From the NCBI GenBank assembly GCA_003021905.1, contig PXPI01000096.1, positions 1 through 35,326 on the forward strand: 35,326 bases of DNA. Reading direction: 5' to 3'. Source of the stretch: Cyanobacteria bacterium SW_9_44_58 (lineage in GTDB: Bacteria; Cyanobacteriota; Cyanobacteriia; Cyanobacteriales; Rubidibacteraceae). Each line of letters begins with the position of its first letter. The first letter of the stretch is position 1. Shown piece by piece: positions 30,368 through 35,074 of this stretch. A model generated the notes under the pieces. It saw nothing but the letters and a program-made list of their open reading frames with translations. It did not search any database and had not been told where the DNA came from. The position numbers and the translations under genes were made by a program.

Positions 30368-30931
30368 TTAGCCTCGGGCGATATTGTGCATTTTTTCCGC
30401 TTTTTGGTGCGCTGCTTCCGCTTGCAATTCTTCTACCACATCCCAAGCCACTGCACATTCTGAAGAATTGTTACCGTTCACTTCACATGCTTGCCGGGCT
30501 TTGGCAACGGCATTGTTAATTTCTTCTTCCAAAACTTTCTCTTTTGGTTTTTCCACGAAGTCGCTTTTCATCAAAATATCAGCAGTAGAAACCAATCCCA
30601 ACAATTCCGCTTGAATTACCGGCGCATGATGAATCTGGGCTTGGGCAAACAAACGCGCCACATATTCCACCCCTAAATCAGGATTAACCACGATACAAGG
30701 TTTGGTCATCACTTCCGACACTCTCACCTGTTCGGGATCTTTCCCATAAGCGGCCACTTGTTTCACAATATCGGTGTCAGTGATTATGCCATAAGCATCT
30801 GCTTCTCGACGGCGATCGACAATTAAGCATCGAATATTTTTTTCTCGCATCAATTGGACGGCTTCTGCAATGGTGGCCGATCCTTTAATTTTAACCACCT
30901 CTGTGGTCATAATTTCTTTGGCTTTCATCAT
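30368..30931 (-). CDS. CBS-CP12 fusion protein
   Basis: The 187-residue protein has two CBS motifs (about 1-60 and 70-125; KEIMTTEVVKIKGSATIAEA, then SEVMTKPCIVVNPDLGVEYV). A CP12-like tail follows at about 135-187. The tail holds the signature AWDVVEEL (162-169) and the N-terminal cysteine pair C149/C159, which in CP12 forms a redox disulfide. It ends shortly after, without the C-terminal cysteine loop that binds GAPDH. CBS-CP12 fusions are known in cyanobacteria. They are thought to sense adenylates and redox state and to act on Calvin-cycle enzymes such as phosphoribulokinase. It heads a tight cluster with deoC (3 bp apart). Confidence 0.9.
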   Translation of the reverse strand: MMKAKEIMTTEVVKIKGSATIAEAVQLMREKNIRCLIVDRRREADAYGIITDTDIVKQVAAYGKDPEQVRVSEVMTKPCIVVNPDLGVEYVARLFAQAQIHHAPVIQAELLGLVSTADILMKSDFVEKPKEKVLEEEINNAVAKARQACEVNGNNSSECAVAWDVVEELQAEAAHQKAEKMHNIARG

Positions 30932-31029: not shown

Positions 31030-31452
31030 TTAACGTCGATTTTTGGTTAATTTTAATTGCGTTCCTTGGTCATTCCAATGGACATGATCAAAAATTTGAT
31101 ATAAAATACATAGCCCCCTCCCTGTTTCTGCATTATCTGCCGGGAGAAGACTATCGGGATTATCTTGACAACAACAGTTGGGAATAAAGCCAGCGCCGTG
31201 ATCGGTAATGACCCAATTACCGTGCGTGCTCATAATGGCATACTGGACAGCAATCGTTTTTCCAGGATCTAATTGGTTCCCATGTTTGGCGGCATTAACC
31301 AATGCCTCTTGTAATCCCAACCGAATTTCGGCTTGCCAGTCCGGGGGAACTTTCGCTACGAGAAGGTCTAAAATGGGACCGAGATATAGAGTTGAGGCAA
31401 AACTGACTGTCCCCCACTTGCATTTTGTTGGACGGGGCAATAATGCAATCAC
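31030..31452 (-). CDS. RsbW-like ATP-binding protein (anti-sigma regulatory factor)
   Basis: The 140-residue protein is a stand-alone HATPase_c domain of the GHKL type, as in the anti-sigma kinases RsbW and SpoIIAB. The N box is LGLQEALVNAAKHGN (about 47-61), the G1-like motif is DHGAGF, and the G2-like motif is ETGRGLCILYQIFD. Such proteins bind a sigma factor or phosphorylate an anti-sigma antagonist (STAS) protein. No STAS or sigma gene is in the window, so the partner is unknown. The gene starts 62 bp downstream of a U-run that ends a likely small RNA on the same strand, and it might instead be carried on the same transcript as a long-leader mRNA. Confidence 0.85.
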   Translation of the reverse strand: MIALLPRPTKCKWGTVSFASTLYLGPILDLLVAKVPPDWQAEIRLGLQEALVNAAKHGNQLDPGKTIAVQYAIMSTHGNWVITDHGAGFIPNCCCQDNPDSLLPADNAETGRGLCILYQIFDHVHWNDQGTQLKLTKNRR

Positions 31453-31514
31453 GCGCTATTACCTCACTTTTTCTAAAAGCCTTTAGGAAGAGATTAATTA
31501 GTAGAAAATCGGTC

Positions 31515-31787
31515 AAAAAAAAGCCCATTCAGCTATTAAAAGCTGTTTCGTTTTTAATTGGAATTGCTACATTTAATTATATCAAAAATTTGACAAGGTT
31601 GAACTCTCCACGGATTAAAATCACATCTTGTTGCCCTCGAAGGACTCTTCCAAAAGGAAGTGGCACGTTCAAAGATGCCCTACAGACAAGTTACTTTCAT
31701 ACTGCCAAGTTAATTGATTACTTCGTTGTTTAAGTATTAACAGGATTTTTAGTTTAAGCCTGACGGTTTTTTCACCATCTGTGGGCC
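31515..31787 (-). ncRNA. Candidate structured non-coding RNA (about 273 nt)
   Basis: The RNA would begin at G31787, 7 bases after a TATAAT, and end in eight U (31522-31515). Its ends pair: minus-strand GGCCCA (31787-31782) with TGGGC plus the first U (31527-31522). AAAA just upstream of the start could lengthen the stem, and CAG/CTG extends it inward past a 2-base bulge. In the middle, GCATCTT/AAGATGT (31678-31672 with 31629-31623) encloses TGCC/GGCA and a 5-bp CTTCC-TTTT-GGAAG hairpin (31660-31647). It could be a stand-alone RNA, for instance of 6S-like architecture, although it is longer than usual 6S. It could also be a 5' leader of the RsbW-like gene. I match it to no known family. Confidence 0.5.
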
Positions 31788-31793
31788 TTTTCA

Positions 31794-31823
31794 ATTATAG
31801 CAGATACAAAAGACTAAAGTCTA
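31794..31823 (-). promoter_or_regulatory. Promoter of the RNA candidate
   Basis: On the minus strand a perfect -10 box TATAAT (31799-31794) stands 18 bp after TAGACT (31823-31818), which matches four of six -35 positions. The expected start, near 31787, coincides with the first base of the closing stem of the RNA candidate. It lies 11 bases or more downstream of the rRNA methyltransferase stop, so it separates the two transcripts. Confidence 0.6.
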
Positions 31824-31833
31824 AATCTGCCAT

Positions 31834-33246
31834 TCATGAGGGGCTGTCGTCGGAACTTGGTTCCGACGCTTGTAAAAAGGCGGCACATTCCACATGAGCA
31901 GTTTGCGGGAAAAAGTCCGCCGGTTGAATCAGGGTGGCTTCATAGCCGCAGGCGGATAACTGTTGTAAGTCGCGAGCGAGTGTGGCAGGGCGGCAACTCA
32001 AATAAACCAGCTTTGGCGGTTGCAACTGGGCAATGGTGTCTAAAACAGCGCGATCGCAGCCTTTTCGGGGGGGATCGAGAAAAATGAGATCAGGCGCCGT
32101 CTCTAATTGGGGAAGAATCGTCTCCACGTTTCCGACATGAAATGTTACATTGTCAATCTGATTGCGTTGGGCACTGCGTCTTGCTTGCGCGATCGCGCTT
32201 GTTTGGGATTCAATGCCAATGACGTGCCGGGCTTGACGGGCAAGGGGCAGAGTAAACGTTCCTACCCCGCAATAAGCATCAACAACGGTTTCGCTGCCAG
32301 TAAGGGCTAACTTGTCTAAAATAAAATCGCACAGCACTTCTGCGGTTTCGGTATTCACCTGGAAAAACGTATCGGGGCGCAAATAAAAGGTTAATCCCGC
32401 AAATTGTTCTTCTAATTCGTCTTTACCGGCAATACAGCGCGTTTCTTTGCCGAAAATAATGTTGTTGCGTTGAGGATTGCGATTGAGACATACCCCGACT
32501 AATTCTGGGAACTGATTCAACCAAGTGTTTGCCTGGGCTTCAACTCCTTCCAGATTCCAATCCGTACTGATTAAGGTTAATAGCACCTCTCCGGTATGCC
32601 GTCCGATTCTCAGGGCTAAATGACGCAGTTTTCCGGTTTCTCGGGTTTCGTGATAAATCTCCCAACCTTGGGCTTCAATATCTTGCTTAATTTGGGCTAA
32701 AAACGGATCTAGACGAGAATCTTGAACCGGACATTGATTGAGATTAACTAATTTATGAGATCCTTTGCGGTAGTATCCCGCTTGCACTTGCCCGGTGGCG
32801 GACCGTTGGAGGGGATAAGCTACCTTGTTTCGATAGTGTAACCCGCTGCCCCGGCTTAACATTTCGGCAACCGGAGGATGGGAAATTTTGCCAATGCGTT
32901 CTAAGGCATCGATAATGATTTGCTGTTTGGCTTGGTGTTGGTAGGGGAAATCAATATGTTGCCACTGACAGCCCCCGCACTTGTCCGCCACGATACAATG
33001 GGGGCGAATCCGATGCGGCGATAGGGTTAGCAATTGTTGAAGTTTCCCATAAGCATATTTGGATTTGACGCGAACGAGACGCACTAACGCGCGATCGCCG
33101 GTCACAGTATCCGGGACAAACACGGCACGCCCTTGCCAACGCCCCACCCCATCAGCGCGATCGCTGAGATCGCTAATTTCCACTTCAATTAAACTGCCTT
33201 GTTGCCATTTTGGGGGATTTGTCTCGGTAACTGACATAATTCTCAC
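31834..33246 (-). CDS. 23S rRNA (uracil-5-)-methyltransferase, RlmD/RumA family
   Basis: The 470-residue protein has a TRAM RNA-binding domain (about 15-75; EVEISDLSDRADGVGRW) and the iron-sulfur cysteines C84, C90, C93 and C172. It ends in a Rossmann methyltransferase domain that makes 5-methyluridine in 23S rRNA. SAM-binding VDAYCGVGTFTL, the FLDPPRKGCD block and the nucleophile C418 in VYLSCRPATLARDL are present. Which uridine is modified (RlmC, RlmD or a dual-site RlmCD-like activity) cannot be told by eye. Translation may start at 33246 or at the Met three codons later (33237). The last codons contain a 9-bp perfect hairpin (31848-31868). Confidence 0.9.
   Translation of the reverse strand: MRIMSVTETNPPKWQQGSLIEVEISDLSDRADGVGRWQGRAVFVPDTVTGDRALVRLVRVKSKYAYGKLQQLLTLSPHRIRPHCIVADKCGGCQWQHIDFPYQHQAKQQIIIDALERIGKISHPPVAEMLSRGSGLHYRNKVAYPLQRSATGQVQAGYYRKGSHKLVNLNQCPVQDSRLDPFLAQIKQDIEAQGWEIYHETRETGKLRHLALRIGRHTGEVLLTLISTDWNLEGVEAQANTWLNQFPELVGVCLNRNPQRNNIIFGKETRCIAGKDELEEQFAGLTFYLRPDTFFQVNTETAEVLCDFILDKLALTGSETVVDAYCGVGTFTLPLARQARHVIGIESQTSAIAQARRSAQRNQIDNVTFHVGNVETILPQLETAPDLIFLDPPRKGCDRAVLDTIAQLQPPKLVYLSCRPATLARDLQQLSACGYEATLIQPADFFPQTAHVECAAFLQASEPSSDDSPS
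31848..31868 (-). terminator. Hairpin inside the last codons of the rRNA methyltransferase gene
   Basis: CGTCGGAAC (31848-31856) pairs perfectly with GTTCCGACG (31860-31868) around a 3-nt loop. It overlaps the final codons of the gene. No T-run follows, so it may protect the mRNA end or act as a weak terminator. It resembles the hairpin at 4105-4125 in its GGAA...TTCC core. Confidence 0.45.
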
Positions 33247-33376: not shown

Positions 33377-35074
33377 TTATCGGGGCCAAATTTCAACTGC
33401 CTTATCAGCTAAGTGATCGGCACGACGTTTTATTTCTTCTTCATTCCAAACTGAGACGTTTTCAAAGTATCTATTAAGAGAAATGTTACTATCACTTAGA
33501 TACTCTTTTTTTTCTTTAAACGGCTTATCAGATAATTCAGAATTGTATGCAGTCAGGGTTAAGTTACCAACTGTATGCAACCATTCTTTGTGTATGGTAT
33601 CATATCTTTCTCCCAACATTTCCTGCCAAGATTCATTTAATTTTTGTGGCATGATATGTTCGATAGTTAAATTGTTTGGATTGACCTGCTCTTTATTTTG
33701 CCAATTTTCTAAACTTTCTAGAATCATTTTGGCGCGCTCTCTCTGATTTTGATTATATAAAGAAAAGCTTATAAAATTTTCGCAAAATTCTTGATTATTA
33801 GGCCATCTTTTATTTCCTTCAAACTCGCTTAATGTAGCGTGTAGTCCTTCAACTAAATCTTTATAACCCTTTTTTTGGATTTGGCTGTATAATTTAGTAA
33901 AAACACCGCCTAAACTTTTTGTAAGTATTTTAACAAACAAGCGACGTACGAAGTAGGACTCTAAATATTGCAAAATTTTCAAAAAATCTTGTAAGGATAT
34001 AATTTCATTTTCATAACAATCGTAAATATTAATCAAGAAAATACGGCTTGTCGTAAAATCCAACCTATTTAAACGATAAAACTTTTCGCGTAACTTGGAA
34101 TTTGATTCTCGCTCGCAAAAACGAATGCGTTGGTAATATCGAGTAAATCGAGTAAGTCTTTCAAGTTTTTGTTCAATTTTATTACCTTTAAAATAATTTT
34201 TTGTTTCTTTATAAACATTTTTCTGAGAAACTGATTTTCCATCCTTTCTTAAAAATGTCCAAAAAGCTGTTGTTAGCTCTTTTGCGGAATCTCCAGAATC
34301 TTTTAAATCCGCTTTAAATTCCTCTTGGATTGGCATCCATTTTTCTTTATAAAGTTTTTCCCTTTTTTCGTTTGGTAATTGCATAAAAATATAATTCCGA
34401 ACTAAATCTGCTTGCGTTAACTCTTGACCTTTATAATTTAAACTTTCAAAAATCAAATAAGGATCGTCTTGTTCTTGGTCCGAAGTAATATTAATAAAAA
34501 CTAATTTTTCAAGAATTACCGTTTTAAAGAGTTCGCATTGCAATTCGGTTTCTTCTTCTAAATCAGGATTAGGATTGCAAATTTTCTCATAGAAAAAATC
34601 ATATGCTTCGCAAATTTTTCCTGTTTCTGTTTCCTTACATGTATTATTAATTATGGATTTATAAATGTCGCGATCTTCTTGAGTTGGCAAAATTTTGTAG
34701 TGCTTATCATCTTTTTTAAATCTATTGATTAAAGATTCTTCATGAATTTCATCCGCAATTTCTTGTAAATTTGGTTTGTTTTTCTTAATATAATCTCGTA
34801 AAGTAGCTAATAAGAGAGTTAGTGTTGTTAAACGTTGTTGTCCATCGATAACTGTAAAAGGAGAAATTCCCTCTGCGGTTCCATGCCTAGATTCGGTAAC
34901 AATTGGACCTAAAAAATAAGAACCTTCGACTTCTTTTTTATAAATACTTAATAAGTCTTCCCATAAAGCTTGCCAATTTTCTTTGTTCCAGGAATAAGGA
35001 CGCTGAAAAAGCGGAATTTGAAATTGTTTAGTGCCTTCTAATAAATTACGTAAACTCGTTTCTAATGCCTTCAT
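33377..35074 (-). CDS. DUF262-DUF1524 protein, GmrSD-type restriction/defence candidate
   Basis: The 565-residue protein has an N-terminal DUF262 domain, related to ParB/Srx nucleotide-binding folds, with IPLFQRPYSW (20-29) and the hallmark VIDGQQRLTTLTLL (75-88). A long helical middle follows. The C-terminal DUF1524 domain is of the His-Me/HNH nuclease type, with TIEHIMPQ (H473) and LHTVGNLTLTAYNSELS (H500, N504). This order is that of single-chain GmrSD type IV restriction enzymes, which cut modified phage DNA using NTP hydrolysis. The gene is markedly AT-rich and free of HIP1 sites, and an IS630-like element follows, all pointing to an acquired island. Partner genes might lie past the window end. 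Activity is not shown. Confidence 0.87.
   Translation of the reverse strand: MKALETSLRNLLEGTKQFQIPLFQRPYSWNKENWQALWEDLLSIYKKEVEGSYFLGPIVTESRHGTAEGISPFTVIDGQQRLTTLTLLLATLRDYIKKNKPNLQEIADEIHEESLINRFKKDDKHYKILPTQEDRDIYKSIINNTCKETETGKICEAYDFFYEKICNPNPDLEEETELQCELFKTVILEKLVFINITSDQEQDDPYLIFESLNYKGQELTQADLVRNYIFMQLPNEKREKLYKEKWMPIQEEFKADLKDSGDSAKELTTAFWTFLRKDGKSVSQKNVYKETKNYFKGNKIEQKLERLTRFTRYYQRIRFCERESNSKLREKFYRLNRLDFTTSRIFLINIYDCYENEIISLQDFLKILQYLESYFVRRLFVKILTKSLGGVFTKLYSQIQKKGYKDLVEGLHATLSEFEGNKRWPNNQEFCENFISFSLYNQNQRERAKMILESLENWQNKEQVNPNNLTIEHIMPQKLNESWQEMLGERYDTIHKEWLHTVGNLTLTAYNSELSDKPFKEKKEYLSDSNISLNRYFENVSVWNEEEIKRRADHLADKAVEIWPR

What the first reader, a model, noticed from the sequence alone, without database searches (positions are those of the whole stretch)
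31515..31787. Possible new structured RNA with pairing ends, between an RsbW-like gene and an rRNA methyltransferase gene
Promoter, predicted start, closing stem, internal branched helices and a terminal U-run all agree in phase. The start falls on the first base of the closing stem, and the U-run falls at the other end of that stem. I match it to no named family. Alternatives are a 6S-type RNA of unusual length or a long regulatory leader for the anti-sigma kinase gene.
Basis: partly seen in the sequence, partly recalled or inferred. Interest (0 to 1): 0.62.

Follow-up and report, generated by a model that had tools for sequence, protein, structure and literature searches.

The report
Decayed jumping-gene remnant, not new RNA
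The apparent new RNA is the worn remnant of a small mobile DNA element that jumped in front of a regulatory gene; better-preserved copies in related bacteria still look able to make a guide RNA for a DNA-cutting enzyme, but this one does not.

Summary
The promoter box, 5' hairpin, internal hairpins and U-run are really in the sequence (minus strand), but they do not form one RNA unit. Window 31599-31871 is a transposase-less IS200/IS605-type element (a PATE/MITE). None of five same-genus genomes carries it here. Four of them read TTAC|CC where the window reads ...GAGAGTTCAA|CC. Related copies lie elsewhere in relatives, and the right end is identical to that of TnpB-encoding elements. The family is a tnpB-deleted derivative that kept the TnpB guide-RNA (omega/reRNA) parts: a GGTGAAAAACCC hairpin, the tnpB 3' segment and the right end. 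Two core stems covary among copies, also when only copies without tnpB are counted. The window copy has lost one core stem and half of the terminal stem through two deletions, so it is probably dead as a guide RNA. It is not 6S: that gene lies elsewhere in the genome. This locus is an ordinary decayed insertion. The interesting part is the family: 21 solo omegaRNA-like copies in three genomes, which could act as guides for TnpB made by other copies (untested).

The parts
31599..31871 (-). Non-autonomous IS200/IS605-type element (PATE/MITE) remnant, 273 bp: starts AAGCGTCGG, ends GAGAGTTCAA
   Evidence: Matching pieces in own genome and relatives; right end shared with TnpB elements; absent at this site in 5 of 5 other same-genus genomes
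31848..31868 (.). Left-end palindrome CGTCGGAAC-CAA-GTTCCGACG
   Evidence: 9-nt arms, 100% complementary, 3 nt between (I7)
31800..31830 (.). Second left-end hairpin GCAGAT..AGACTTTAGTCT..ATCTGC, abutting the -10 box
   Evidence: read; outer arms listed as I9
31794..31799 (-). -10 box TATAAT
   Evidence: 6 of 6 match; 17 of 500 shuffles of the upstream segment reach it
31756..31787 (-). 5' hairpin GGCC..GATGGTGAAAAAACCGTC..GGCTT, counterpart of the GGTGAAAAACCC hairpin in tnpB
   Evidence: 10-row alignment: 94.0% of cells paired, covariation 0.231 vs 0.136 shuffled, but only 2 of 10 pairs changed on both sides; for its place in tnpB
31686..31687 (-). Deletion scar 1: about 48 nt missing relative to L005-type copies, including core stem S1 (GCTAAAC/GTTTAGC)
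   Evidence: comparison of copies; model R1 matches the window only over positions 34-60 of 64
31662..31680 (-). Core stem S2 GGGCAT-CTTTGAAC-GTGCC (kept)
31647..31660 (-). Hairpin S3 CTTCC-TTTT-GGAAG (L021 copy: CTCC/GGAG)
31599..31622 (-). Right-end motif GATTTTAATCCGTGGAGAGTTCAA; the 5' half of the terminal stem (GGAATCCACGC) is missing (deletion scar 2, 39 bp between GATTTTAATCC repeats relative to L021)
31515..31598 (-). Host sequence: native leader of the rsbW-like gene, with a GATATAAT box, a CAGCTTTTAATAGCTG hairpin and the U8 run
   Evidence: compared with uninterrupted leaders of relatives
31834..33246 (-). rlmD (23S rRNA m5U1939 methyltransferase); its last 11 codons are element sequence
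   Evidence: TIGR00479 E 2.9e-152
31030..31452 (-). RsbW-like anti-sigma kinase-type ATPase
   Evidence: PF13581 E 5.4e-17; SpoIIAB and RsbW models match only far below their cut-offs

Best explanation
SHOWN from sequence: the region is a decayed, transposase-less IS200/IS605-type element inserted between rlmD and the rsbW-like gene. Its family is a tnpB-deleted derivative of TnpB-encoding elements that kept the left end, a GGTGAAAAACCC hairpin, the tnpB 3' segment with two covarying stems, and the right end; most copies also have a -10-like hexamer before the hairpin. INFERRED mechanism: intact copies are moved by a Y1 transposase (TnpA) made elsewhere and make a short omegaRNA/reRNA whose guide is the DNA flanking the right end; a TnpB made by another copy could use it to cut the emptied site and so keep the element. 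The window copy has lost core stem S1 and the terminal stem, so it most likely makes no working guide RNA. Its remaining effects are local: it split the native rsbW promoter-like region, brought its own TATAAT, and supplied the last codons of rlmD.
For: Uninterrupted site: five of five other same-genus genomes lack the element upstream of the rsbW-like gene; G001, G002, G003, G005 read TTTTAC|CCTT, G004 reads TTTCCC|CCTT (in G002 no rlmD match lay in the stretch held). Multicopy: 23 matching pieces in G001, 10 in G003, 3 in own genome, several pieces per copy. Right end: exact 24-mer in the window, in 13 of 14 pattern hits in G001, 2 of 5 in G003, 2 of 4 in G035. Four G001 loci have the same right end behind a tnpB frame, unbroken in three (L108-L110), broken in L111; L108 protein = guided_TnpB NF040570 E 1.6e-51, PF01385 E 5.4e-15. 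Own copy C119 joins the element's 5' half to a right end like that of the TnpB elements. Stems: A4 (12 solo + 4 other cores) covariation 0.341 vs 0.148 +/- 0.022, 0 of 500 shuffles, best slid version 0.124; 16 solo cores only: 0.381 vs 0.182, 0 of 500, best slid 0.167. Intact copy z = -3.42, window element part z = -1.00. R1 finds only positions 34-60 in the window. TnpA source: six PF01797 matches over the cut-off in the own genome, several of them fragments, none on the window's contig.
Against: The left junction is not simple: the window joins the first of two host TTACs (37 bp apart in G005) to an internal left-end TTAC, so a second deletion through TTACAA must be assumed. Four of seven fam2 copies (L200, L201, L202, L215) have a broken S1, so not every solo copy keeps the fold. 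In the pair counts one measure, further pair types, is ordinary (62, 207 and 79 of 500 shuffles), and for the 5' hairpin the number of pairs changed on both sides is too (128 of 500). GGTGAAAAACCC also codes GEKP in tnpB, so its conservation there has another cause. The -10-like hexamer is not significant in fam2. No transcript data. The own genome's closest TnpB (C113, 81%) covers residues 299-427 only, near a contig end, and holds a stop, so a partner TnpB in this strain is not shown. TTAC/TCAA as the IS608 cleavage sites is recalled.
Confidence: 0.95

Rival explanations
1. A new discrete structured RNA of about 270 nt with pairing ends.
For: TATAAT, 5' end and U-run line up; hairpins and closing helix in the MFE.
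Against: The 3' 84 nt are host leader and the rest is part of a multicopy element; a closing helix as long is reached in 2286 of 5000 shuffles; whole fold z -1.69.
Confidence: 0.02
2. An unusual or second 6S RNA.
For: Promoter box, closing stem, length of the same order.
Against: Rfam 6S matches another contig at 78.6 bits and nothing here, even at E<=10.
Confidence: 0.01
3. The insertion now serves as promoter and leader for the rsbW-like gene (co-opted element).
For: Same orientation; TATAAT kept; the native hexamer TTTACC (four of five relatives) now reads TTCAAC.
Against: No expression data; the host box GATATAAT remains and could still work; the copy shows decay, and of the six genus genomes searched only this one has it there.
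Confidence: 0.3
4. The window copy still makes a working TnpB guide RNA.
For: Right-end motif, S2, S3 and 5' hairpin are kept.
Against: S1 and the 5' half of the terminal stem are missing; fold z -1.00 against -3.42 for an intact copy.
Confidence: 0.05

Closest known systems
PATEs (palindrome-associated transposable elements) of Haloquadratum walsbyi, PMC3119063 (passages seen)
   Same: Transposase-free, near-terminal palindromes, some derived from IS605-type transposons by repeat-mediated core deletion; [quoted passage not shown]
   Different: Archaeal; predates omegaRNA; the passages seen describe no promoter, guide-RNA fold or covariation
PATE-like element of Halanaerobium hydrogeniformans, PMC7290912 (passages seen)
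   Same: 28 nt of left end with its hairpin + last 58 nt of tnpB + entire right end, no tnpA
   Different: One such sequence in that genome; here multicopy families that also keep an upstream hairpin and often a -10-like box
TnpB reRNA/omegaRNA of ISDra2, PMC8612924 (passages seen)
   Same: RNA from tnpB 3' end plus right end, guide from flanking DNA
   Different: Made from a tnpB-bearing element; here tnpB is missing, and the window copy lacks two stems

Membership tests
IS200/IS605-derived PATE/MITE | No transposase or tnpB gene in the element | tested here: met
   No PF01797 match and no match of the L108 TnpB on the window's contig C96
IS200/IS605-derived PATE/MITE | Near-terminal palindromes at both ends | tested here: inconclusive
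   Left-end 9-bp palindrome present; right-end stem present in intact copies but half missing in the window
IS200/IS605-derived PATE/MITE | Insertion 3' of a short target (TTAC) without target duplication | tested here: inconclusive
   Right junction fits TTAC|CC in 4 of 5 relatives; left junction changed, apparently by a later deletion
IS200/IS605-derived PATE/MITE | Multicopy and related to a larger gene-bearing element | tested here: met
TnpB omegaRNA/reRNA (family of copies) | tnpB 3' end + right end with conserved stems | tested here: met
   four of seven fam2 copies have a broken S1
TnpB omegaRNA/reRNA (window copy) | Complete scaffold including S1 and terminal stem | tested here: not met
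   Two deletions; R1 matches positions 34-60 only
TnpB omegaRNA/reRNA | RNA bound and used by TnpB | not testable with these tools
   needs co-purification or a cleavage assay
6S RNA (RF00013) | Match to the 6S covariance model | tested here: not met
   No match here; 6S found on C136

The most novel reading that the evidence does not exclude
The genomes related to the window carry two families of miniature elements that are guide-RNA-only: left end, often an own -10-like box, a compacted TnpB omegaRNA with covarying stems, right end, and no protein. Each copy would make a guide that matches its own insertion site, and TnpB from other elements would act on it in trans, so a protein-less element could secure its own retention.
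Probability: 0.35. Interest if true: 0.65.

Novelty: new member of a known kind. Interest (0 to 1): 0.3.

Why it matters
It removes a candidate new RNA family and shows a trap: a mobile-element remnant beside a host T-run can imitate a closed, promoter-to-terminator RNA. At family level it gives two sets of solo omegaRNA-like elements with covarying stems, which would make it testable whether non-autonomous IS605 derivatives keep a guide RNA usable in trans.

Tried and rejected
Rejected: 6S; a known Rfam family (gathering: only a tRNA at 1055-1128; E<=10 over 31300-32000: two eukaryotic matches below their gathering scores); a conserved rsbW leader; a plus-strand RNA (z -0.29); the closing stem as a functional feature (2286 of 5000 shuffles reach it, and 4 of 6 other copies' 5' ends pair longer with the same host stretch).

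Led nowhere: a pattern scan of genome contigs for the 5' hairpin gave 0 (records near the window's genome may be left out there); the right-end pattern gave two loci of Spirulina sp. CS-785/01. Literature: nine answered searches showed no paper on omegaRNA-only miniature elements in their listings. I saw passages, not whole texts, of seven papers: PMC3119063, PMC8612924, PMC7290912, PMC9956272 (a reference-list hit only), PMC10711439, PMC11870625, PMC10278001. The sign omega cannot be searched well and most subscription papers are missing.

Weak points: the -10 box is strong in some copies (TATAAT, 4-42 of 500 shuffles in L176, L206, L207, L208, L217; 17 in the window), middling in the other fam1 copies tested (67-116) and not significant in fam2 (175-496). 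The shuffle controls of the pair counts do not allow for relatedness, and fam1-fam2 differences carry much. One search covers 46 of the 47 R1 matches in the genus (the window was left out). One search used stricter filters and scored 88 candidates per genome, so copies may be missed.

Corrections made: in A1 five letters at the 3' end of row L041 were typed wrongly; redone as A4 and recounted (0.341 instead of 0.344). Model R1 was built from A1 with that error. A2 (counted) lacked L012; redone as A5. A1/A4 hold 16 of 18 true distinct strings (two dropped as identical over the core); 11 further strings were chance regex matches and dropped. A note gives deletion 2 as 48 bp; it is 39.

Full report
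WHAT WAS CLAIMED. A roughly 270-nt RNA (31515-31787) with a promoter, a start on a closing stem, internal helices and a U-run at the other end. Only the minus strand fits: TATAAT 31799-31794, start near 31787, U-run 31522-31515, upstream of the rsbW-like gene (31030-31452) and downstream of rlmD (31834-33246).

IS IT MORE THAN CHANCE. The signals exist, but the fold is weak: z = -1.69, 11 of 200 shuffles at least as stable; plus strand z = -0.29. A contiguous helix of 6 or more pairs between the two ends appears in 2286 of 5000 shuffles. Rfam gives only a tRNA at gathering score in the window and two matches below their gathering scores at E<=10 around the finding. 6S RNA sits on another contig (78.6 bits).

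COPIES. The 331-bp stretch 31500-31830 has matching pieces in 4 of 60 genomes (G000, G001, G003, G035): 3 in the own genome, 23 in G001, 10 in G003, 4 in G035 (several pieces per copy). Apart from the self match, the pieces cover window 31830 to 31595, that is they end at or within four bases of the element's right end and do not cover the 3' host part. The right-end motif GATTTTAATCCGTGGAGAGTTCAA occurs with up to 3 mismatches in 5 of 60 genomes (G000 3, G001 14, G003 5, G035 4, G048 4) and in none with the reversed control pattern.

WHAT THE ELEMENT IS. In four G001 loci the same right end follows a tnpB frame, unbroken in L108-L110 and broken in L111. The L108 protein (430 aa) is guided_TnpB (NF040570, E 1.6e-51) and OrfB_IS605 (PF01385, E 5.4e-15). 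Left ends begin after TTAC with palindromes in both kinds of element. So the window element is a transposase-less IS200/IS605 derivative, a PATE or MITE. [quoted passage not shown]

THE UNINTERRUPTED SITE. The rsbW-like gene was found in 20 of 20 relatives. In the five other genomes of the genus its upstream region has no element. G001, G002, G003 and G005 read TTTTAC|CCTT followed 16 nt after TTTACC by TATAAT or TACAAT; G004 reads TTTCCC|CCTT. The window reads ...GAGAGTTCAA|CCTTGTCAAATTTTTGATATAATT. The right junction is thus a clean insertion after TTAC. The left junction is not: G005 has two TTACs, 37 bp apart, and the window joins the first one (in rlmD...FLQ) to an internal TTACAAGCG of the composite left end that is longer in other copies. 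A later deletion through the shared TTACAA would explain this, and RlmD now ends with element-coded residues (ASEPSSDDSPS). That deletion is an inference.

WHY THERE IS RNA STRUCTURE. TnpB of ISDra2 uses a guide RNA made of the 3' end of tnpB plus the right end, with about 16 nt of flanking DNA as guide (PMC8612924, passages); processed omegaRNAs of 79-466 nt are reported (PMC10278001, passages). Fam1 copies keep the tnpB segment GTAGAGATACAGC...TGCC with stems S1 and S2. On 16 distinct cores (12 solo, 3 with tnpB, 1 of G048), 88.5% of cells pair, 7 of 13 pairs have a change on both sides, covariation 0.341 against 0.148 +/- 0.022 shuffled and at most 0.124 when slid. On the 16 distinct solo cores, 89.4%, 6 of 13 pairs, 0.381 against 0.182 and at most 0.167. 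The 5' hairpin around GGTGAAAAAC(C)C gives 94.0% and 0.231 against 0.136 on 10 rows, with only 2 of 10 pairs changed on both sides, which 128 of 500 shuffles reach. The measure 'further pair types' is ordinary in all three counts. In 20 of the 25 tnpB-linked loci GGTGAAAAACCC (up to one mismatch) lies 120 nt upstream of the core; in 20 of the 21 solo copies it lies 30-32 or 97-103 nt upstream. The solo elements thus lost coding sequence between two retained parts. The intact L021 RNA folds with z = -3.42, 1 of 200 shuffles as stable.

THE WINDOW COPY IS DECAYED. Against L005-type copies it lacks about 48 nt containing S1; against L021 it lacks 39 bp between two GATTTTAATCC repeats, which removes the 5' half of the terminal stem. 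Model R1 finds only positions 34-60 of 64 (31661-31687, E 9.4e-4), and the element part folds with z = -1.00.

HOW COMMON ARE SOLO COPIES. R1 hits 16 of 60 genomes; 47 hits lie in the genus (G000 5, G001 29, G002 3, G003 10; G004 and G005 none). Of the 46 outside the window, 21 show no tnpB or only weak matches to its last third (14 fam1: 9 in G001, 4 in G003, 1 own; 7 fam2: 5 in G001, 2 in G003) and 25 have tnpB or a remnant, 10 of these with an open frame of 350 codons or more into the core (grouping by me from that table). Fam2 (L197, L198, L200-L202, L213, L215) has the same layout with different stems; in four of its seven members S1 is broken, which speaks against uniform constraint. One solo copy (L182) lacks the 5' hairpin.

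PROMOTER. A hexamer with 5 or 6 matches to TATAAT lies before the hairpin in 19 of the 20 solo copies that have it, and in the window (6 of 6). Against shuffles it is strong for the five TATAAT copies and the window, middling for the rest of fam1 (67-116 of 500) and not significant in fam2. I did not map transcripts.

MECHANISM. Shown: origin, right boundary, relation to TnpB elements, covarying stems, decay of this copy. Inferred: transposition by TnpA in trans, guide use by TnpB in trans, retention. Own-genome partners: six PF01797 matches over the cut-off, several of them fragments, and four matches to the L108 TnpB: the closest (81%, C113) covers residues 299-427 near a contig end and has a stop, two at 50-51% are open, one is at 38%. 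For rsbW, the first hexamer of the native promoter-like pair now reads TTCAAC, and the element brings its own TATAAT. Whether this changes rsbW expression is open.

NOVELTY. The locus is a new member of a known kind. Guide-RNA-only miniature elements did not show up in nine answered searches of an open-access library, which is not proof of absence in print.

Noticed in passing
31834-31871: The last 11 codons of rlmD (ASEPSSDDSPS) are read from the element's left end; G005 ends in host sequence (FLQRGNPPKQ).
   Followed up: partly
L197, L198, L200, L201, L202, L213, L215: A second family of solo omegaRNA-like elements with the same layout but other stems; four of the seven have a broken S1.
   Followed up: partly
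L008, L009, L014, L015, L023, L111, L200: Among copies, short words are swapped for GC-rich ones (GGCA to GCGCCC, TGCC to GGGCGC, TAG to AAGCG, TTTA to CGCGA). No cause known to me.
   Followed up: no
L108 protein, around IIVFGWNKG: The place where TnpB usually has its second RuvC acidic residue seems to lack Glu; recalled motif, not tested.
   Followed up: no
30368-30931: Protein with two CBS stretches and a CP12 domain.
   Followed up: no
33377-35074: GmrSD-type restriction protein next to rlmD (PF03235, PF07510).
   Followed up: no
own genome and five same-genus genomes: TnpB genes are very numerous: 26-56 PF07282 matches per genome against 1-9 PF01797 (TnpA) matches.
   Followed up: no
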